Below, one piece after another: positions 3,389 through 18,913 of a stretch of 36,066 bases of DNA (positions are counted from its first letter, which is position 1; every line of letters starts with the position of its first letter). A program made the translations under genes and the position numbers. The stretch is from Pseudonocardiales bacterium (GTDB lineage: Bacteria; Actinomycetota; Actinomycetes; Mycobacteriales; Jatrophihabitantaceae): NCBI GenBank assembly GCA_030840445.1, contig JAVEEN010000110.1, positions 1-36,066 of the forward strand, in the 5' to 3' direction. The notes under the pieces were generated by a model. The model saw nothing but the letters and a program-made list of their open reading frames with translations, searched no databases and had not been told where the DNA came from.

Positions 3389-4219
3389 ATGACTGTTCCG
3401 AACGTGGTGCTGAACAACGGCGTGGAGATTCCGCAGCTGGGCTTCGGGGTGTTCCTGGTCCCGGAATCGGAAACGAAGGCCGCCGTCAGCTGCGCCCTGG
3501 AGGCGGGTTACCGCCACATCGACACCGCAAAGTTGTACGACAACGAGAAGGCGGTCGGTGCCGCGATCGCCGAATCCGGCCTCCCGCGCGACGAACTGTT
3601 CGTCACGACCAAGGTGTGGAACTCCGAGCAGGGTTACGACGAGGCCCTGGGCTCCTTCGAGGCGTCGATGCAACGACTCGGGCTCGACGTCCTGGATCTG
3701 TTACTCATTCATTGGCCGGCACCCGCCCTGAACCGCTACGTCGACACCTGGCGGGCCTTCGAGAAACTCCAAGCCGATGGCCGGGTCCGGGCAATCGGGG
3801 TGTCCAACTTTCACCCCGAGCACCTCAAGCGCCTGATCGACGAGACCGGTGTGGTGCCCGCGATCAACCAGGTCGAGCTGCATCCCTTGTTGCCACAGCG
3901 CGAAGTGCGGGCCTTCGACTCCGAGCGTGGCATCGTGACCGAGGCCTGGTCACCGCTGGCTCGCGGCGGCTCCGTGCTGACCGATCCGGTGGTGGCCGCC
4001 ATCGCCGCAAGTCATGGCAAGACACCGGCTCAGGTCGTCCTGCGTTGGCACCTCGAACAGGGCATCGTGGCCATCCCGAAGTCGGTCACGCCGTCCCGGA
4101 TCGCCGAGAACATCGATCTCTTCGACTTCACGCTCAGCGATGCCGAAGTGGCGGAAATCTCCGGCCTGGAGACCGGACATCGGATCGGCCCGAACCCGGA
4201 CACCTTCAGCCGCGCGTGA
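3389..4219 (+). CDS. Aldo/keto reductase (2,5-diketo-D-gluconate reductase-like)
   Basis: A 276-residue NADPH-dependent carbonyl reductase with the (beta/alpha)8 AKR fold, acting in the cytoplasm on aldehydes or keto sugars. The catalytic tetrad is complete: Asp45 and Tyr50 in HIDTAKLYDNE, Lys75 in TTKVWN and His108 in LIHWPAP. The AKR signatures GVSNF and IPKSVTPSRI are present. The track ORF begins 44 codons earlier, but that stretch overlaps the start of the divergent deaminase and is not conserved-looking. The ATG at 3389 begins the typical MTVPNVVLNNGVEIPQLGFG N-terminus and gives the usual family length. It has no ribosome site, so translation is probably leaderless. The specific substrate cannot be read from sequence. 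Confidence 0.92.
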   Translation: MTVPNVVLNNGVEIPQLGFGVFLVPESETKAAVSCALEAGYRHIDTAKLYDNEKAVGAAIAESGLPRDELFVTTKVWNSEQGYDEALGSFEASMQRLGLDVLDLLLIHWPAPALNRYVDTWRAFEKLQADGRVRAIGVSNFHPEHLKRLIDETGVVPAINQVELHPLLPQREVRAFDSERGIVTEAWSPLARGGSVLTDPVVAAIAASHGKTPAQVVLRWHLEQGIVAIPKSVTPSRIAENIDLFDFTLSDAEVAEISGLETGHRIGPNPDTFSRA

Positions 4220-4273: not shown

Positions 4274-5937
4274 TAGGCCGTCAGGGCGTCGGAGACGATC
4301 TTGCGGGCTTCCTGCTGGATTTGGGCCAGGTGTTGCGGACCGGCGAAGGACTCGGCGTACAGCTTGTACACGTCCTCTGTTCCGGACGGGCGCGCGGCGA
4401 ACCAGCCCCGCTCGGTAGTCACCTTCAGGCCACCGATCGGCGCCCCGTTCCCCGGTGCCACGGTCAGCCGTGCGGTGATCGGATCGCCGGCCAGTTCGGC
4501 GGCCGACACCTGATCCGGTGAGAGCTTGGCCAGCACCGCCTTCTCCTCGCGGGTGGCAGGCGAATCGATACGCGCATAGGCCGGTGATCCGAACCGTTCG
4601 GTGAGCCTGCGATAGTGCTCGGACGGCGAAGACCCAGTCACGGCAAGGATTTCCGAGGCGAGCAGGCTCAGGATGATGCCGTCCTTGTCGGTTGTCCACG
4701 CCGAACCGTCCCGTTGCAGGAAGGAGGCGCCCGCCGACTCCTCGCCTCCGAAGCCGACCGACCCGTCCAGCAATCCGGGGACGAACCATTTGAACCCGAC
4801 CGGTACCTCGATCAACTTCCGGCCCAGCTCGGCAGCGACCCGGTCGATCATGGACGAGGACACCAGCGTCTTGCCGATCGCGGCATCCGGACGCCAGCCG
4901 GGACGGTTGCCGTACAGGTACTGGATCGCCACCGCGAGGTAGTGGTTAGGGTTCATCAGGCCGGCGTCCGGCGTCACCACCCCGTGCCTATCTGCGTCGG
5001 TGTCGTTGCCGGTGGCGATATCGAACTCGGCGCCGCCGCTCGACATCGTCCGCACCAGCGAGGCCATCGCCGCCGGCGACGAGCAGTCCATCCGGATCTT
5101 GCCGTCCCAGTCCAGGGTCATGAAACCGAACTGCGGATCCACCGTCGGGTTTACCACGGTCAGGTTCAACCCATAACGCGAGCCGATCTCGGCCCAGTAC
5201 GCCACCGAGGCGCCGCCGAGCGGATCCGCACCGATGCGCACCCCTGCGTCACGGATCGCGTCGAGGTCTACCACCGCGGGCAGCGCCGAGACGTAGGCGT
5301 CCAGGAAGTCGAAGCCCTGCACGTACTGCGAGTCGCGCGCCTGCTGGTAGCTCACCCGCTTGACACCGCTGAGCCCGTCTGCGAGCAGCTCGTTGGCCCG
5401 GTCCTGGATCCACCCGGTGATCTCTGTTCCGGCTGGACCCCCGTCCGGCGGGTTGTACTTGTATCCACCGTCGGAGGGCGGGTTGTGGGACGGGGTGACG
5501 ACCACGCCGTCAGCGAAGCCCGAGCCGCCCGGCGCCCTGCCGGCGTTGTGGGCCAGTATCGCGCGCGACACCGCGGGGGTGGGCGTCAGGCCCTCACGCG
5601 AATCGACCAGCACGGTGACCTCGTTGGCCGCGAACACTTCCAGCGCGGAATGCGTCGCCGGGGACGACAGGGCATGGCTGTCCTCGCCCAGATAGAGCGG
5701 GCCGTCGATGCCCTGCCGGGCCCGGTACTCCACGATGGCCTGGCTGGTGGCGAGGATGTGGTCCTCGTTGAAGGTGGCCGTCAGCGAGGATCCGCGGTGT
5801 CCCGAGGTTCCGAAGGACACCCGCTGCTCGGGCTGAGCCACATCGGGGTGCCGCGAGTAATAGGCCTCGATCAGGTTCGCCACATCGACGAGGTCGGACG
5901 GCTGGGCCGGCTGTCCCGCACGGGCTGAGTTCACCAT
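4273..5937 (-). CDS. pgm: Phosphoglucomutase (alpha-D-glucose-1,6-bisphosphate-dependent)
   Basis: A 554-residue enzyme interconverting glucose-1-phosphate and glucose-6-phosphate, linking glycolysis with glycogen, trehalose and cell-wall precursor synthesis. It shows the phosphoserine loop [11 protein letters not shown], the magnesium loop DTDADRHG, the sugar-binding GGEESAG and the phosphate-binding [12 protein letters not shown], in the order of the bacterial Pgm family, which is about 545-550 residues. The track ORF is 193 codons longer upstream, but that extension is antisense to kdpD. The ATG at 5937 gives the typical N-terminus leading to [10 protein letters not shown]. The gene is monocistronic and divergent from kdpD. 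Confidence 0.95.
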
Positions 5938-11783: not shown

Positions 11784-12919
11784 CTGACCCGGTCTGGGAC
11801 GTTGTTGTTGTGGGGGCCGGGCCGGCTGGTTGTTCGGCTGCGGCATCGATCGGGAGGTGTGACCCGAGCGCCCGGGTGCTGGTGGTCGATCGGGCCGACT
11901 TTCCCCGGGACAAGGCCTGTGGCGACGGCATTGCCTCCGAGGCGGCGGACCTGCTCGCCGAGCTTGGCTTCGATGTCGGCTCGGTGTTCGCCGGTGCCCC
12001 GCCAGTGTGCCGGCTGGCCTTGCGCTCGCCCGCGGGGATCGAGGTAAACCGGCAGATGCGCCAGCCCGTCCATGTCGTTCCGCGCGAGATCCTCGATGAG
12101 CGACTGGTTGCCGACATCCGCCGGCGCGGCATCGAGGTCAGACGTCACGAGGTACGCACGGTGGCCGTGGATGGACGGGGGCCGGTCGTGCTGGACGGAT
12201 CCCTGCGGGCCAGGTTCGTCATCGGAGCCGATGGTGCCGAGTCTGTCGTCCGGCGTGCCCTCGGGGTGCCCGCCGCGGCCAAGGGCCGGGTCGCCCTCGC
12301 CATTAGGGGATACGCACCCGAGCTTGCCGACCAGGACGGCGCGCAGGTGATTGTCATGACCCAACGGCATTGGCCTGCCTACGCCTGGAGTTTCCCGCTC
12401 GGGGACGGCCGCGCCAACATCGGCTACGGGGAACTGATCGGGCCCGGCCCATTGCGCCGCACCGACATGCTGACCCGGATGGCGGCCTTGCTGCCCGGAC
12501 TCGACTCCCATCCGGACCGGCTGCGGGCCCATCGGTTGCCGCTGTCGTCCGGCCGTCCGGCGATCCGGGCCGGCCAGGTTCTGCTTGTGGGCGATGCCCA
12601 ATCCCTGATCAACCCGTTCACCGGCGAGGGAATTTTCTATGCCGTGGCCTCGGGTGCGCTGGCCGGACAGGCAGCCGCCGAGGCGCTGCGGTCCGGACTT
12701 GATGCCGGGACGGCCTACCGGCGGCTGACGCGCGAGCGACTGGGCCGGCATTTCCTGCACACGTCAGCCCTGGCTCGCCTCGGACGATGGCCGGGACTCA
12801 TCGACGCCGGTATGCGGGCGGCACGTGCGGACCAGCGGGTGTTCGACGACCTCGTCCATTTCGGCTTGGCCGACGGCAAACTGACTGGGCAGATCATCAG
12901 AAACCTCCGGTTCAGCTGA
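11780..12919 (+). CDS. Geranylgeranyl reductase-family FAD-dependent oxidoreductase
   Basis: A 379-residue flavoprotein of the GGR family, which reduces isoprenoid double bonds, for example in menaquinone side chains or lipids, or performs related redox steps. It has the FAD dinucleotide fold VVVGAGPAGCSAA at the N-terminus, the family motif DKACGDGI (about 44-51), FVIGADGAESVVRR and the second FAD motif LLVGDAQSLINPFTGEGI. Its ATG overlaps the stop of the WDWL membrane protein (ATGA), so the two are coupled and may act together at the membrane. It could serve menaquinone saturation, but family membership alone does not fix the substrate. A short hairpin overlaps its stop codon. Confidence 0.88.
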   Translation: MTDPVWDVVVVGAGPAGCSAAASIGRCDPSARVLVVDRADFPRDKACGDGIASEAADLLAELGFDVGSVFAGAPPVCRLALRSPAGIEVNRQMRQPVHVVPREILDERLVADIRRRGIEVRRHEVRTVAVDGRGPVVLDGSLRARFVIGADGAESVVRRALGVPAAAKGRVALAIRGYAPELADQDGAQVIVMTQRHWPAYAWSFPLGDGRANIGYGELIGPGPLRRTDMLTRMAALLPGLDSHPDRLRAHRLPLSSGRPAIRAGQVLLVGDAQSLINPFTGEGIFYAVASGALAGQAAAEALRSGLDAGTAYRRLTRERLGRHFLHTSALARLGRWPGLIDAGMRAARADQRVFDDLVHFGLADGKLTGQIIRNLRFS

Positions 12920-12924
12920 GGTTT
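12901..12924 (+). terminator. Weak hairpin over the end of the GGR-family gene
   Basis: A 7-bp perfect stem (AAACCTC and GAGGTTT) with a ten-base loop spans the stop codon. It may contribute to termination, but it is short and lacks a T-run after the stem. Confidence 0.35.
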
Positions 12925-12960
12925 CCCGGGGTTCCCGACGGTCTCCGCCCGGTTCGTGTC

Positions 12961-12990
12961 AGGTGATCAACTCGCGTTTGGTGGCGCCAT
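12961..12990 (-). repeat. Left half of a split 58-bp palindromic repeat
   Basis: AGGTGATCAACTCGCG and the following bases through GGCGCCAT match the first 30 bases of the reverse complement of the intact repeats at 18029-18086 and 18134-18191. The match stops abruptly at 12990, where the inverted end of the inserted segment begins. Confidence 0.7.
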
Positions 12991-13204
12991 AGAGCCTGTT
13001 GCGTGATTGGTGTGTCTCCCCGGTGGTGGTCGTGGATGGCGGGAGAGTCTGGTAGTTCTCACGGATTTCGAGTGGTGGGGCCGGGATCAGCGGCTCTTGA
13101 TGGCTGCGGATAGGCGCGGGTGGCTGCCTGCTGATGGTTAGGCCGTGGGGCAGCGTTGGAGCCGTGAGATCGAGCGGCTGTGTCACACCGAGGTGGGGTA
13201 ACAG

Positions 13205-13272
13205 CCACGGCGCTGAGATGGCCACGGCACTGAGATGACCACGGCGCTGAGATGACCAGGGCACTGAGTTCA
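13205..13272. repeat. Tandem array of four 17-bp units
   Basis: CCACGGCGCTGAGATGA-type units begin at 13205, 13222, 13239 and 13256. The first three differ at only one or two bases and the last is more degenerate. The period is not a multiple of three and the region is non-coding. Confidence 0.85.
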
Positions 13273-13376
13273 CCCGCCGGTTGGTGCGGCCTCAGGCCGA
13301 GGGTCAGGGCCGTTGGGGTGGGTGACTGTTCCGGTTGGGGTGCACAGCGTGTCACCGGTCGCGTTTGCGCAGCCCC

Positions 13377-13536
13377 CCGTGGGAGACACCCGCCGTGGGA
13401 GACACCCGCCGTGGGCGGCACGCGCCGTGGGCGGCACGCGCCGTGGGCGGCACGCGCCGTGGAGGACACCCGCCGTGGGCGGCACCCGCCGTGGGCGGCA
13501 CCTGCCGTGGGCGGCACCGGCCGTGGAGGACACCCG
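13377..13536. repeat. Tandem array of ten 16-bp units with higher-order structure
   Basis: Ten exact-length units start every 16 bases from 13377, with core CCGTGG followed by GCGGCAC, GAGACAC or AGGACAC. Units 3-6 and 7-10 share the order of three GCGGCAC-type units then one AGGACAC-type unit, so a 64-bp block was duplicated. Each GCGGCAC unit can form GCCG-TGGG-CGGC. The period rotates the reading frame, which creates pseudo-ORFs in all frames. Confidence 0.92.
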
Positions 13537-13740
13537 CACCGGCCGGATGACAAGGCTTCAACGGCCAAACTCCTCGTCAGCAGCGACGCCAAAGCACCCG
13601 AGCGGCTCATCACCCTGGGCACCCGCGAACACGTTGCACCGCCGCGCACTCCCGCCGGTTCGCCCGGCGAGGACTCAGCGCAGCCCCCAGCGAGGTCCGC
13701 TTCGCCGCAGCCGTCACCAACCTGCTCCGGCCGCACTCCC

Positions 13741-13773
13741 ACCCAGCAGCCACCCAGCAGCCACCCAGCAAGC
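13741..13773. repeat. Short tandem array of 11-bp units
   Basis: ACCCAGCAGCC repeats at 13741, 13752 and 13763, the last copy with one change. It lies near the right end of the putative insertion. Confidence 0.75.
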
Positions 13774-13852
13774 CACCCCGGCCTGAATAGCCGCCACCAG
13801 GCCCAAACCTGGACCACCCCCAACCGCACACGCATTACGCAACAGGCTCTTT

Positions 13853-13880
13853 AGCCCCGGAAAATGGGAGTGGATCACAG
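13853..13880 (-). repeat. Right half of the split 58-bp palindromic repeat
   Basis: AGCCCCGGAAAATGGGAGTG and the following GATCAC continue the reverse complement of the intact repeats exactly where the left half (12961-12990) ends. The 30 and 28 bases add up to the 58-bp unit length. Confidence 0.7.
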
Positions 13881-13944
13881 CCCGCGGGGCCCCGAGAACG
13901 GGAGCACCCACACCCCTGGGTTGGCCAGAAACCACGCCTCGGGG

Positions 13945-13973
13945 TTGTCCAATCGGGTCGACCGGCCTATGGT
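13945..13973 (+). promoter_or_regulatory. Likely xylA promoter
   Basis: TTGTCC and TATGGT, each four of six to the housekeeping consensus, are separated by exactly 17 bases. Transcription would start near 13980, just before the candidate XylR operator and about 65 bases before the xylA ATG. Confidence 0.6.
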
Positions 13974-13983
13974 GGACGAATAA

Positions 13984-13998
13984 GTTCAGGCATTAAAC
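13984..13998 (+). promoter_or_regulatory. Candidate XylR (ROK) operator
   Basis: GTTCAGGCATTAAAC is an imperfect palindrome (GTTxA...TxAAC) in an AT-rich patch at the predicted transcription start of xylA. The position suits repression by the ROK regulator encoded at the end of the operon. Assignment rests on position and shape only. Confidence 0.4.
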
Positions 13999-14045
13999 AA
14001 AAGGCCCGGACGACCCGCCCCCGCACTGGTAAAGGTGACATTCCC

Positions 14046-15263
14046 ATGGTCGAGAGCACATCTGGAAAATCTCCCGCCGGCCCGACGCCCACCAAGGCCG
14101 ACCGGTTCTCCTTCGGTCTGTGGACCATCGGCTGGACGGCGCGCGATCCGTTCGGTGATCCCACCCGAGCCCCGCTGGACCCGGTCGAAGCCGTCCACAA
14201 ACTGAACGACTTGGGCGCCTACGGCATCACGTTCCATGACGACGACCTGGTCCCGTTCGGGTCGTCGGTCTCCGAGCGGGACAAGGTCATCGAGCGGTTC
14301 AAGACTGCGCTGGACGAGACCGGCATCGTGGTGCCGATGGTTACCACCAACCTGTTCACCCACCCGGTGTTCAAGGACGGCGGATTCACCAGCAACAACC
14401 GCGACGTCCGGCGGTACGCCCTGCGCAAAGTCATTCGCAATATCGAACTTGCCGCCGACCTTGGTGCAAAGACGTTCGTCCTCTGGGGTGGCCGCGAAGG
14501 CAGCGAGTACGACTCGGCCAAGGACGTCCAGGCGGCGCTCGAGCGCTACCGCGAGGGCATGAACCTGCTAACCACCTTCGTCACCGAGCGTGGCTATGAC
14601 CTCAGGTTCGCCATTGAGCCCAAGCCCAACGAGCCCCGCGGCGACATCCTGCTGCCGACGCTCGGTCATGCGATCGCCTTCACGAACTCCCTCGACCGAC
14701 CCGATCTGGTCGGCGTCAACCCGGAGGTCGGCCACGAGCAGATGGCGGGCCTCAACTTCGCCTCCGGCATCGCCCAGGCGATCTGGCACGGCAAGCTGTT
14801 CCACATCGACCTCAACGGTCAGCGTGGCATCAAGTTCGACCAGGACCTGATCTTCGGTCACGGCGACCTGATGAACGCCTTCAGCCTGGTCGACCTGCTC
14901 GAGAACGGCGGCCCGAACGGCGGCCCGTCCTACACCGGTCCGCGGCACTTCGACTACAAGCCCTCGCGCACTGAGGACTACGACGGCGTCTGGCACTCAG
15001 CTTCGGCCAACATGCGGATGTACCTGATCCTCAAGGAGCGCGCCGCAGCCTTCCGCGCCGACCCGGAGGTACAGGAGGCGCTTGCGTACGCCAGGGTCCC
15101 CGAGTTGTCCGAGCCGACCCTCAACCCCGGCGAGACGTACGCGGACCTGCTCAAGGACACGACTGCCTTCGAGGACTTCGATCCCGATGCGGTCGGTGAG
15201 CCCGGCTACGGATTCGTCCGGCTCAACCAGCTCGCGATCGAGCACCTGACGGGCACTCGCTGA
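14046..15263 (+). CDS. xylA: Xylose isomerase, class I
   Basis: A 405-residue enzyme converting D-xylose to D-xylulose (and glucose to fructose) with two divalent metals in a TIM barrel. Visible landmarks are catalytic His64 in [26 protein letters not shown], the metal-ligand strand [12 protein letters not shown], the metal site [17 protein letters not shown], and [17 protein letters not shown]. Length and motifs match the shorter actinobacterial class I type, about 390 residues. The N-terminus has some 15 extra residues rich in Ser, Pro and Thr. The start ATG has AAAGGTG eight bases upstream. It heads the xylA-xylB-xylR operon behind its own promoter and operator. No xylose transporter lies nearby. 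Confidence 0.97.
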
Positions 15264-15282
15264 TCCAGGTGAGGTAGCGGTA

Positions 15283-15302
15283 AGGCCCCCGATTCGGGGC
15301 CT
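15283..15302 (+). terminator. Hairpin in the xylA-xylB gap
   Basis: A 7-bp perfect stem (AGGCCCC and GGGGCCT) with a six-base loop sits 20 bases after xylA. It may partly terminate transcription or protect the xylA mRNA 3' end. Confidence 0.45.
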
Positions 15303-15335
15303 GCTGGGGCCAAAACCGGTGCCCGCTTGATCTAC

Positions 15336-15371
15336 GCCGCGGATCCGGTGACGATGACTCGGATCCGCGGC
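15336..15371 (+). promoter_or_regulatory. 12-bp inverted repeat before xylB (hairpin or operator)
   Basis: GCCGCGGATCCG and its exact reverse complement are separated by 12 bases. Immediately downstream (about 15372-15397) two mutually exclusive smaller stems, GCTCGG/CCGAGC and CGGTGCT/AGCACCG, can form. The xylB ribosome site AGGGAG lies at 15418-15423. The whole 166-bp gap is therefore structured and may tune xylB expression. Confidence 0.5.
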
Positions 15372-15429
15372 GCTCGGTGCTGTCGCTGCCGAGCACCGTC
15401 GCCTTCGTACCAGTTCCAGGGAGAAACCG

Positions 15430-16821
15430 ATGCCCCTCGTGGCCGGAGTGGATTCGTCTACCCAATCATGCAAGATCGTAATTCGGGACGCCGAGACCGG
15501 ACGGTTGGTTCGTCAGGGTCGGGCAGCCCACCCCGATGGCACCGAGGTCGACCCGGCCGCCTGGTGGTCGGCCCTGCAGCAGGCCATCGATTCGGCGGGT
15601 GGCCTCGATGATGTCGCGGCGCTCAGTGTCGGTGGCCAGCAGCACGGCATGGTGTGCCTGGACGAGGCCGGTGACGTCGTCCGTCCGGCGTTGCTGTGGA
15701 ACGACACCCGGTCGGCGCAGGCGGCCGCTGATCTGACCGCGGAGCTGAGCGCTGAGAAATGGGCTGACGCGGTCGGCCTGGTGCCGGTCGCGTCCTTCAC
15801 CATCACCAAGCTGAGGTGGCTGGCCGAGCACGAGCCGGCGAACGCGGACCGGGTGGCGGCGGTGTGCCTGCCGCACGACTGGCTGACCTGGAAGCTGTCC
15901 GGATCAACCGCTATCCGAGACCTCGTCACGGACCGCTCGGATGCCTCGGGCACCGGATATTTCGATCCGAGGACGAACAACTACCGCCGTGATCTGCTGA
16001 CGCTCGCATTCGGCCGGGACCTGTTGCTGCCCCGGGTAGCGGCACCCGCTGAAGCCATCGCCGGTAACGGCTCGCTGGTGTTCGGACCGGGTGGCGGTGA
16101 CAATGCCGCGGCCGGATTCGGGGTCGACGCCGGTGACGATGCCGTGGTCTCGCTCGGCACCTCGGGCACCGTATTCGCCCGAAGCACCCAGATGGCGGTC
16201 GATCCGACCGGCATCGTTGCCGGATTCGCCGATATGAGCGGGGCATTCCTGCCGTTGGTGTGCACACTGAACGCGGCCCGCGTGCTGGACGCGGCGGCCC
16301 GGATGCTCGGGGTCGATCTGCCCACGTTGAGTGAGCTGGCCCTGCAGGCCGAGCCCGGCGCCCAGGGGCTGACTCTGGTGCCCTACCTCGAAGGCGAGCG
16401 GACCCCGAACCTCCCCGACGCCACCGGAGCGATTCACGGACTGACGCTGGCCAGTGCAACCCGGGACAACCTTGCCCGGGCGGCGGTCGAGGGTATGTTG
16501 CTGGGCCAGGCCGCCGGCTTGGATGCGCTTGCGGCACAAGGGTGTTCGGTGTCCGGGGTGCGCATCGTCGGCGGGGCCGCGCAGTCCGAGGCTGTGCGCC
16601 GGATCGCTCCGACGGTGTTCGGCGTCCCGGTCGAGGTGCCACCGCCGGGCGAATACGTTGCCGACGGCGCGGCGCGGCAGGCAGCCTGGGTGCTGGCCGG
16701 TGGCGCGCAGGCGCCGTCCTGGAGGCCTGGTCTGGAGGATGTTGACCGGTACGAGGCACCGCTGACCCCCGGGCTGCGCGAACGATACGTCCTGGCCTCC
16801 CAGCGGTACCTCGACCGGTGA
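15430..16821 (+). CDS. xylB: Xylulokinase (FGGY family)
   Basis: A 463-residue kinase phosphorylating D-xylulose to xylulose-5-phosphate for the pentose phosphate pathway. It shows the N-terminal phosphate-binding [10 protein letters not shown] with Asp8, the FGGY segments [12 protein letters not shown] and [17 protein letters not shown], and the catalytic-base region [11 protein letters not shown] with Asp224. Ligand-binding [11 protein letters not shown] and the C-terminal [16 protein letters not shown] complete the two-domain fold. The start ATG has AGGGAG about six bases upstream. The last bases overlap the regulator start (GTGA), so xylB and xylR are coupled. Confidence 0.95.
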
Positions 16822-18002
16822 CCGAGGCGCCTGCCCCCGCGGGCCAGCACACCGTGCGGGAGCACAACCTCAAGCTCGTGCTCGCTGAACTTGTGACCGG
16901 CCCGGGATCTCGAGCCGAGCTCGCGCAGCGCACCGGTCTGACCAAGGCAACCGTGGCCAGCCTGGTGGATACCGTTATCGAGCAGGGAATACTGCTCGAA
17001 GCTGACCCGGAGGTATCCGGGCCCGGCAGGCCGTCCCGGATGCTGAGTTTCCATCCCGAGGGGCCGGTGGCGGTCGGAGTGGAGATCAACATCGACTACA
17101 CCGCCATCTGTGAGCTTGATCTGACTGGGAAGTTGATCCGGCACGAACAGCACCCGGTGGACAACCGGGTGGGGACCCTGACGGGCGTGCTCCGGCACAC
17201 CGCGCGCATCTGCCGTGCATTCGTGCAGGGTGGCCGTCGACCGCTGCTGGGTGTTGGTCTCGGCGTGCCTGGTGCCGTCAGCCCAGATGGCCAGGTGCTG
17301 CGCGCCCCGAACCTGCCGGTTCTCAACGGCGAATCGATCGGTCCGAGTTTCAGCCAGCAGCTGGGCCTCAACCTCGGCGCGCCCGTCATCGTGGAGAACG
17401 AGGCAAACCTAGGCGCCCTGGCCCGACTCCGATCGGCGCCGGACGCCGGGCAGGACTTCGTCTACGTTTCAGGAGAGATCGGCGTCGGTGCCGGCCTAAT
17501 CGTCGAGGGCGAGCTGTTCCGAGGCCTCAACGGATTCGCCGGTGAGCTCGGACATGTCGTGGTCGATCGGGACGGACCCGCGTGCGGATGTGGCGGCCAG
17601 GGTTGTGTCGAGCAATATGCCGGACAGGATGTCCTGCTCCGCACTGCCCGTCAGCCTGACGTCGAGGCGCTGCTGGCGGCGATTTCACGCGGGGACTCCC
17701 GTGCCTGGGGCGCCGTCGACCGGGCTGGTGCTGCCTTGGGTGTCGGGCTGGCGTCCCTGCTGAATGTGGTCGATCTACCGATGGTGGTGCTTGGCGGCGT
17801 GTACGCCCGGCTCTTCGATGCGATTACGCCGTCGCTGCAGGCTGAACTCGGCCGCCGCGTCCTGTCGTCCGGGCGGGGCGGCGGTCAGATCCGCCGTTCC
17901 TCGCTCGGCGTGGACGCGGCCGTGCGGGGGGCTGCCGGGCTGGTCATCGACCGGGCCTTGAAGGAGCCTCGCCAGTTGGCCGCGGGGCTCCAGTCGGGGT
18001 GA
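16818..18002 (+). CDS. xylR: ROK-family transcriptional regulator, probable xylose repressor
   Basis: A 394-residue regulator with an N-terminal winged helix (about 12-65; [28 protein letters not shown]) and a ROK sugar-binding domain. That domain has [40 protein letters not shown] and the zinc motif [25 protein letters not shown]. It should repress xylAB in the absence of xylose and, as the third gene, control its own level. GTG start within the xylB stop. Its TGA stop lies inside a partial copy of the dispersed palindromic repeat, so the repeat may have redefined the C-terminus, though the length is normal. The name XylR is inferred from context. Confidence 0.9.
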
Positions 18003-18028
18003 TCCACTCCCGTTTTTGCGGGCCCGTC
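17999..18028 (+). repeat. Partial copy of the 58-bp palindromic repeat at the xylR stop codon
   Basis: GTGATCCACTCCCGTTTTTG is identical to the first arm of the intact copies, then diverges (CGGGCCCGTC). The TGA stop of xylR is part of the repeat arm. The intact copy follows without a gap. Confidence 0.75.
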
Positions 18029-18086
18029 AGGTGATCCACTCCCGTTTTTGGGGGCTATGGCGCGGGTTTTCGCGAGTGGATCACCT
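18029..18086 (+). repeat. 58-bp palindromic (REP-like) repeat, copy 1
   Basis: The ends AGGTGATCCACTCCCG and CGCGAGTGGATCACCT are reverse complements at 15 of 16 positions, with the central region TTTTTGGGGGCTATGGCGC. It matches copy 2 at about 50 of 58 bases; the differences cluster in a GGGTTTT/CCGAAAA block that looks locally inverted. Confidence 0.88.
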
Positions 18087-18133
18087 GGCACCCGGCACCC
18101 ATCACTTGGCTGGTGGTCGGCGGGCCCCCCGCC

Positions 18134-18191
18134 AGGTGATCCACACCCGTTTTTGGGGGCTATAGCGCCCGAAAACGCGAGTGGATCACCT
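18134..18191 (+). repeat. 58-bp palindromic (REP-like) repeat, copy 2
   Basis: Same length and orientation as copy 1, starting 105 bases after it. It ends eight bases before the stop of the convergent siderophore-interacting gene, so the pair may also act as a terminator. The 47 bases between the copies include a GGCGGG/CCCGCC stem. Confidence 0.88.
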
Positions 18192-18199
18192 AGGTACGG

Positions 18200-18913
18200 T
18201 CAGCGGGTGGGACGGGAATTGAGGTTCCAGTATCCCTTGGCGTATACGTCGGACCGGGTCAGGCCAAACCGTGCGAGGCTGTCCCGCAGCGCCACCACCG
18301 CCCGGGATTCGCCGATGACGTAGGCGTATCCGGTGCCGGCACCCGGGCGCACCTCATCCAGCGCCGATGTCAGCAGCCCCACCGAGCCGGCTGGCTGTCC
18401 GTTACGCGGCAGCCACCTGACCGGGGCGTTCGGGGGCAGCGGGTAGACCTCCGCTTCGTCGGCGATCTCGGCGAACACCGGTAGCTCACGTTCGAGCGAC
18501 TCGGCGAGGGCAGCCACCGCGGGCAACCCGGATTCATCGGTGAGGGCAACGACCCAGTCCGCGGTGGGTGGCGGGATCTCGCCGCGCGGTCCGAAGAAGG
18601 TAACCGCATCATCGACCTCCAGCCCCGCTGCCCAGGTCGACCCCGGACCATGCCCGTGCAGGACCGCGTCGACCACCAGGGTGTCCTCGATCACCGAACG
18701 GACGGTGTACCGGCGCCGCACCTCGCGGTTTTCTTCGGTACCGGTCAGGACGATCGCGATGTCACAACCGACCGGCCAGCGCTGTGCGTCGATCGAGGCC
18801 GCGCCTGGCGCCGAGGCGAGCGTGATCCGGCGCATTCGAGGTGACACGGTAGACACTGAGCGGACCCGGGTGAGGAATTGTCCGGTGCGGGTGATGTGTT
18901 GGACAGAAGACAT
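18200..18913 (-). CDS. Siderophore-interacting protein-type FAD/NAD(P)H oxidoreductase
   Basis: A 237-residue cytoplasmic flavoreductase of the SIP family, which reduces ferric siderophores to release iron. It shows the FAD-binding pattern SPRMRRITLA, RRYTVRSV, the VDAVLHGHGPGSTWAAGL stretch, FFGPRGEI and the C-terminal YAKGYWNLN. The usual GDETALPA element appears as TDESGLPA. The track start is 14 codons upstream; ATG at 18913 gives the usual MSSVQHITRTGQF N-terminus and is preferred. No siderophore synthesis or uptake genes are adjacent. It is divergent from ohr across 73 bp and convergent with xylR. Confidence 0.88.
   Translation of the reverse strand: MSSVQHITRTGQFLTRVRSVSTVSPRMRRITLASAPGAASIDAQRWPVGCDIAIVLTGTEENREVRRRYTVRSVIEDTLVVDAVLHGHGPGSTWAAGLEVDDAVTFFGPRGEIPPPTADWVVALTDESGLPAVAALAESLERELPVFAEIADEAEVYPLPPNAPVRWLPRNGQPAGSVGLLTSALDEVRPGAGTGYAYVIGESRAVVALRDSLARFGLTRSDVYAKGYWNLNSRPTR

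What the first reader, a model, noticed from the sequence alone, without database searches (positions are those of the whole stretch)
12961..13880. A 58-bp palindromic repeat split by an 862-bp insertion with inverted ends
Bases 12961-12990 and 13853-13880 are the two halves (30 and 28 bp) of the repeat found intact at 18029 and 18134. Joining them restores exactly 58 bp. The material between has 24-bp ends matching at 21 positions in inverted orientation. This is direct evidence of a mobile, apparently non-autonomous segment targeting the centre of a REP-like palindrome. Palindromic repeats are known targets for some insertion sequences.
Basis: seen in the sequence. Interest (0 to 1): 0.7.

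Follow-up and report, generated by a model that had tools for sequence, protein, structure and literature searches.

The report
Defunct transposon inside a palindromic repeat
The 858-bp segment is a worn-out, non-autonomous relative of IS1182-family insertion sequences that jumped into the centre of a dispersed palindromic repeat, as its sibling copies in this and a sister bacterium also did; this is a clear but fairly ordinary case of a transposon that prefers palindromes.

Summary
A 58-bp palindrome of a family with 22 intact copies in this genome is split by an 858-bp element (12992-13849) whose ends match as inverted repeats (GAGCCTGTTGCGT...). About 14 independent insertions are seen in this genome and its sister G004, a Pseudonocardiales MAG. 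Ten to eleven of them have the same palindrome arm at the same distance from the end. G004 carries the intact palindrome without the element at two orthologous places, the window site and G000:C373. At C373 the flank alignments overlap by exactly 4 bp, so the insertion duplicated the 4-nt palindrome centre (CATA). Its relics encode N- and C-terminal pieces of an IS1182-family transposase, and intact IS1182 copies elsewhere in the order carry the same type of ends, several of them in other palindromes. No intact transposase was found in this genus or family, so the element is an internally deleted, decayed, non-autonomous IS1182 derivative filled with 16/17-bp tandem repeats. Palindrome targeting is documented for IS1182-family and REP-targeting ISs. 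This is therefore a new member of a known kind: well supported, modest interest.

The parts
12961..12991 (.). left half of the split 58-bp palindromic repeat, ending in the left copy of the 4-bp target duplication (CATA, 12988-12991)
   Evidence: intact palindrome at the orthologous locus of G004
12992..13849 (+). 858-bp non-autonomous, decayed IS1182-family derivative
12992..13015 (+). left terminal inverted repeat GAGCCTGTTGCGTGATTGGTGTGT
13826..13849 (-). right terminal inverted repeat GAGCCTGTTGCGTAATGCGTGTGC (complement)
12992..13198 (+). relic of the transposase N-terminus (frame broken); the same stretch in copy C366 is open and hits NF033551 positions 2-37
   Evidence: tblastn alignment spans 12926-13198, E 1.3e-4
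13205..13268 (.). 17-bp tandem repeat, 3.8 copies
13373..13537 (.). 16-bp tandem repeat (CCCGCCGTGGGCGGCA), 10.3 copies, shared with other copies
13566..13754 (+). relic of the transposase C-terminus (matches residues 472-505 of a 505-aa ORF, 56% identity, E 6e-6)
13850..13880 (.). right half of the split palindrome, starting with the decayed right copy of the duplication (TTTA, 13850-13853)
18029..18086 (.). intact copy of the palindromic repeat
18134..18191 (.). second intact copy of the palindromic repeat

Best explanation
The segment is a non-autonomous, internally deleted and decayed derivative of an IS1182-family insertion sequence. A DDE transposase acting in trans on the GAGCCTGTTGCGTAAT terminal repeats inserted it into the centre of a pre-existing dispersed palindrome, with a 4-bp staggered cut that duplicated the palindrome's central tetranucleotide (CATA in the best preserved copies). 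Shown: related copies with shared ends, insertion at the palindrome centre, empty sites in a sister genome, 4-bp duplication, IS1182 transposase relics. Inferred: that the enzyme recognised the palindrome, probably as a hairpin or cruciform tip; that the enzyme came from an IS1182 element since lost or not assembled; and that the family no longer moves in this lineage.
For: About 20 contigs of the own genome and 8 of G004 carry pieces of the family. Of 14 independent insertion sites with a readable end, 10 have the exact arm GTGATCNNCTC 18 bp from the end and one more has it with a single mismatch. The G004 empty site at the window locus has an intact palindrome. At the second locus, C373, the G004 flank alignments overlap by exactly 4 bp (C172:5268-5271), and the occupied G000 site has CATA on both sides; G004:C280 also has CATA on both sides. 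Relic peptides hit NF033551 transpos_IS1182 at 5.2e-10, with the N-terminus at positions 2-37 and a second piece at 261-323. The window element itself matches the last 34 residues of an IS1182-type ORF at 6e-6. Intact IS1182 loci in the order have ends such as GAGCCTGTTGCTTAA (L175), GAGCCTGTCGCGTAA (L166) and GAGCCCGTTGCGTTT (L172). L172, L176 and L183 sit in other palindromes (flank symmetry p of about 2e-4 to 4e-4), and L166, L168 and L172 show 4-bp duplications. Literature: some IS1182 members target palindromes (PMC4923244 and PMC5678879, citing Siguier 2015); ISPse1 of IS1182 has 16-bp IRs and a 4-bp duplication (PMC3281130).
Against: The window copy's own duplication is imperfect (CATA/TTTA), and G4C147 has CTGG/CAGA. 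The G004 empty palindrome at the window locus has a different, longer centre, so the exact pre-insertion sequence there is not read directly. Pfam found no domain in the relics. The comparator intact elements L161, L162, L166, L168, L171 and L178 do not have significantly symmetric flanks, so palindrome preference is not universal in the family.
Confidence: 0.93

Rival explanations
1. The palindrome arms are the outer part of the element's own long terminal inverted repeats, and the solo 58-bp palindromes are deletion remnants of it.
For: In the window the 52-nt arms run continuously from palindrome half into terminal repeat, and the palindrome is itself a dispersed repeat.
Against: Empty sites with intact palindromes lie at orthologous places. 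A 4-bp duplication falls exactly between palindrome half and terminal repeat. Palindromes occur in G007 with no element. Copies C366 and C226 have element ends without the palindrome arm. Arms differ from copy to copy as solo palindromes do.
Confidence: 0.03
2. Stem-loop replacement as described for IS1272: the element replaces the hairpin with no target duplication.
For: Same IS family; hairpins are the targets (PMC5678879, PMC4923244).
Against: Here both palindrome arms are retained, and a 4-bp duplication of the centre is seen at C373 and G4C280. This corresponds to pathway c (loop duplication) in the model of PMC5678879, not to replacement.
Confidence: 0.02
3. Targeting is by primary sequence (the palindrome's own motif) rather than by palindromic structure.
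For: In these two genomes nearly all copies are in one palindrome family.
Against: Intact IS1182 relatives sit in unrelated palindromes (L172, L176, L183), and the arms at our junctions vary. The two views are not fully separable here because this palindrome may simply be the commonest one in the genome.
Confidence: 0.25

Closest known systems
IS1182 family insertion sequences (e.g. ISPse1; actinobacterial IS1182 copies L166, L172, L175)
   Same: terminal repeat type GAGCCTGTTGCG.., about 4-bp duplication, transposase relics match NF033551, palindromic targets in several members
   Different: no intact transposase; 428-858 bp instead of about 1.5-1.85 kb in the intact order copies; internal tandem repeats
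IS1272/TnSha1 (IS1182 family, staphylococci)
   Same: hairpin/inverted-repeat targets
   Different: IS1272 deletes or replaces the hairpin and makes no duplication; here the arms are kept and the loop is duplicated
REP-targeting ISs (IS1397, ISKpn1, IS621, ISPpu9, ISRm22)
   Same: insertion at a fixed position in a dispersed extragenic palindrome
   Different: other families (PMC1525189 lists IS3, IS110, IS4, IS256, IS5); here an IS1182 derivative and a longer 58-bp palindrome
MITEs
   Same: non-autonomous, inverted ends, several dispersed copies
   Different: long, heterogeneous, with recognisable transposase fragments, so closer to a decayed IS than to a classic short MITE

Membership tests
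IS1182 family (as derivative) | transposase homologous to the IS1182 family | tested here: met
   relic peptides vs NF033551 E 5.2e-10; window copy vs intact order ORF E 6e-6
IS1182 family (as derivative) | terminal inverted repeats like those of intact members | tested here: met
   GAGCCTGT[TC]GC.. ends flank intact IS1182 genes in L166, L168, L171, L175 and others
IS1182 family (as derivative) | about 4-bp target duplication in members that make one | tested here: met
   CATA/CATA at C373 and G4C280; 4-bp overlap at the empty site
IS1182 family, autonomous IS | intact transposase gene between the ends | tested here: not met
   only fragments; no NF033551 match at E<=1e-20 in own genus or family and no PF05598 match in the genus
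IS1272-type stem-loop replacement | hairpin deleted, no duplication | tested here: not met
   both arms retained, 4-bp duplication
REP (for the palindrome) | short extragenic palindrome in many copies | tested here: met
   22 intact in own genome, 10 in G004, 10 in G007, 13 in G016; reversed-pattern control 0
REP (for the palindrome) | GTAG/CGTC-type tag and an associated REP-transposase (RAYT) gene | not tested
   no search for a RAYT gene was made

The most novel reading that the evidence does not exclude
An IS1182-type transposase that reads the tip of an extruded cruciform and inserts with a 4-nt loop duplication while keeping both arms, using a dispersed 58-bp REP-like repeat as its near-exclusive landing pad in this actinobacterial genus; a loop-duplicating counterpart of IS1272's stem-loop replacement.
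Probability: 0.3. Interest if true: 0.45.

Novelty: new member of a known kind. Interest (0 to 1): 0.3.

Why it matters
It gives a clean three-step natural series at one locus (C373: no palindrome in G007, palindrome in G004, palindrome plus element in G000) and a direct reading of a 4-bp loop duplication. It extends REP/palindrome targeting to a non-autonomous IS1182 derivative in uncultured actinobacteria. It does not change the general picture, since palindrome targeting is already known for IS1182 and for other IS families.

Tried and rejected
Rejected: chance end similarity (the ends recur with the palindrome). The three non-Pseudonocardiales hits of the genome-contig scan (L153, L154, L157) are chance: no palindrome partner and no second end within 3 kb. 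Considered IS5/IS427, IS6 and IS110 for the ends; dropped when IS1182 relics and IS1182 ends were found. Pfam on the two long ORFs of the element gave nothing, so the 200-aa and 258-aa ORFs in it are not taken as genes. Rfam: no match in 12900-18300. The GAGCCTGTTGCGGCAT hit on C113 is not an element (it does not continue into it).

Full report
The finding was checked on the sequence. The halves of a 58-bp palindrome are at 12961-12991 and 13850-13880, and between them lies an element of 858 bp, 12992-13849, with terminal inverted repeats GAGCCTGTTGCGTGATTGGTGTGT / GAGCCTGTTGCGTAATGCGTGTGC (20 of 24 identical). The insertion is intergenic, between a FAD-dependent oxidoreductase gene ending at 12919 and a TIM-barrel (AP_endonuc_2) gene starting at 14046.

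The element is one of a family. Searching the window's own genome (G000, 402 contigs, 92% complete) with the 862 bp gave 32 pieces on about 20 contigs, and the sister species G004 gave 11. No family member was seen in the other seven genomes of the genus; weak matches elsewhere in the order cover mostly the tandem-repeat region. The palindrome-plus-end pattern occurs in 2 of 397 genomes of the order. Copies with two readable ends are 858 bp (window), 583 bp (C373), 473 bp (G004:C280) and 428 bp (G004:C147). Many others are cut by contig ends, as expected for repeats in a draft assembly.

The element goes to the palindrome centre. At 14 independent insertion sites with a readable end, 10 have the exact palindrome arm GTGATCNNCTC 18 bp from the end, an eleventh has it with one mismatch, a twelfth is degenerate, and two (C366, C226) lack it. 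In the sampled loci a random 38-bp stretch holds the exact arm with frequency 0.0024. Two insertions are shared by G000 and G004 (C235 = G4:C227 and C158 = G4:C205), so they predate the split. The window insertion is not shared.

Empty sites settle the direction of events. At the window locus G004 (flanks 94-97% identical) has an uninterrupted palindrome and no element. At C373, G004 has the uninterrupted palindrome GTGATCCACTCGCGCCTTTCGGTGCCATGGCGCACGAAAACGCGAGTGGATCAC. The two flank alignments overlap by exactly four bases (5268-5271), and the occupied site carries CATA on both sides. In G007 the same intergenic place lacks even the palindrome. So the palindrome arrived first and the element then inserted in its centre, duplicating the 4-nt loop. 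This rules out the alternative that the palindrome arms are part of the element.

The family was identified through the better preserved copies. Copy C366 (L118) reads VAYGSRPIDRDQQFLMAPDMREWLPADHLVWFVLDTLAGLDLAPS at its left end, and copy C145 (L120) reads MKTCTGWVQGFNG...VLGDAGYASLTAE further in. Joined for one search, these fragments hit NCBIfam NF033551, IS1182 family transposase, with E 5.2e-10, at profile positions 2-37 (N-terminal piece) and 261-323. The window copy itself matches the C-terminal 34 residues of an IS1182-type ORF (56% identity, E 6e-6) and, weakly, the N-terminal region. The middle is missing and is occupied by 16- and 17-bp tandem arrays. No IS1182 transposase gene was found in the genus or family, while 36 of 397 genomes of the order have one.

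The intact relatives provide an independent check. Their termini are of the same kind (L175 GAGCCTGTTGCTTAA on both sides, L166 GAGCCTGTCGCGTAA, L172 GAGCCCGTTGCGTTT, L168, L171). L172, L176 and L183 lie in palindromes unrelated in sequence to ours (symmetry test p of about 2e-4 to 4e-4), and L166, L168 and L172 show 4-bp duplications. Six others show no significant symmetry. Palindrome preference is therefore a habit of part of the family. This agrees with the literature: IS1272/TnSha1 of the IS1182 family target hairpins (PMC5678879, PMC4923244), other IS1182 members are reported to target palindromes (Siguier 2015, as cited in both), and ISPse1 has 16-bp IRs with a 4-bp duplication (PMC3281130). 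IS1272 replaces the hairpin without duplication; our element keeps the arms and duplicates the loop, which is pathway c in the scheme of PMC5678879. REP targeting is known for IS3, IS110, IS4, IS256 and IS5 families (PMC1525189).

Mechanism. Most likely an IS1182 transposase supplied in trans bound the GAGCCTGTTGCGTAAT ends and joined them across a 4-bp stagger at the tip of the palindrome. That a transposase did this is inferred from ends, duplication and relics. That it reads structure rather than the arm sequence is a reasonable but unproven step; the unrelated palindromes used by relatives favour it. The divergence among copies (about 71-94% over aligned pieces) and the missing transposase suggest that the family is old and probably now immobile in this genome, although an unassembled autonomous copy cannot be excluded. 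The window insertion itself most simply postdates the split from G004, since precise excision from G004 is the only alternative.

The thing is a new member of a known kind. Interest is modest (0.3).

Noticed in passing
window 18029-18191 and other genomes of the family: Palindrome family GTGATCNNCTC..GAGNNGATCAC: 22 intact copies in own genome, 10 in G004, 10 in G007, 13 in G016 and 4 in G015 (other genera, where it is 64 bp with a longer centre); absent from most other relatives. It has itself spread (absent at the C373 site in G007); what moves it is unknown.
   Followed up: partly
window 13373-13537 and 13205-13268: 16-bp (10 copies) and 17-bp (4 copies) tandem arrays in the middle of the element, also present with different lengths in other copies; they account for much of the element's length variation.
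   Followed up: partly
L128 (G000:C158) 3630-3730 versus L132 (G004:C205): In G000 the palindrome half next to the element is present twice in tandem, and the left flank has extra GTGATCGTCCG repeats, compared with G004.
   Followed up: no
window 18002-18200: Two palindromes sit between convergent genes (ROK-family gene ending at 18002 and siderophore-interacting protein gene ending at 18200), 27 bp and 9 bp from the stops; they might serve as transcription terminators.
   Followed up: no
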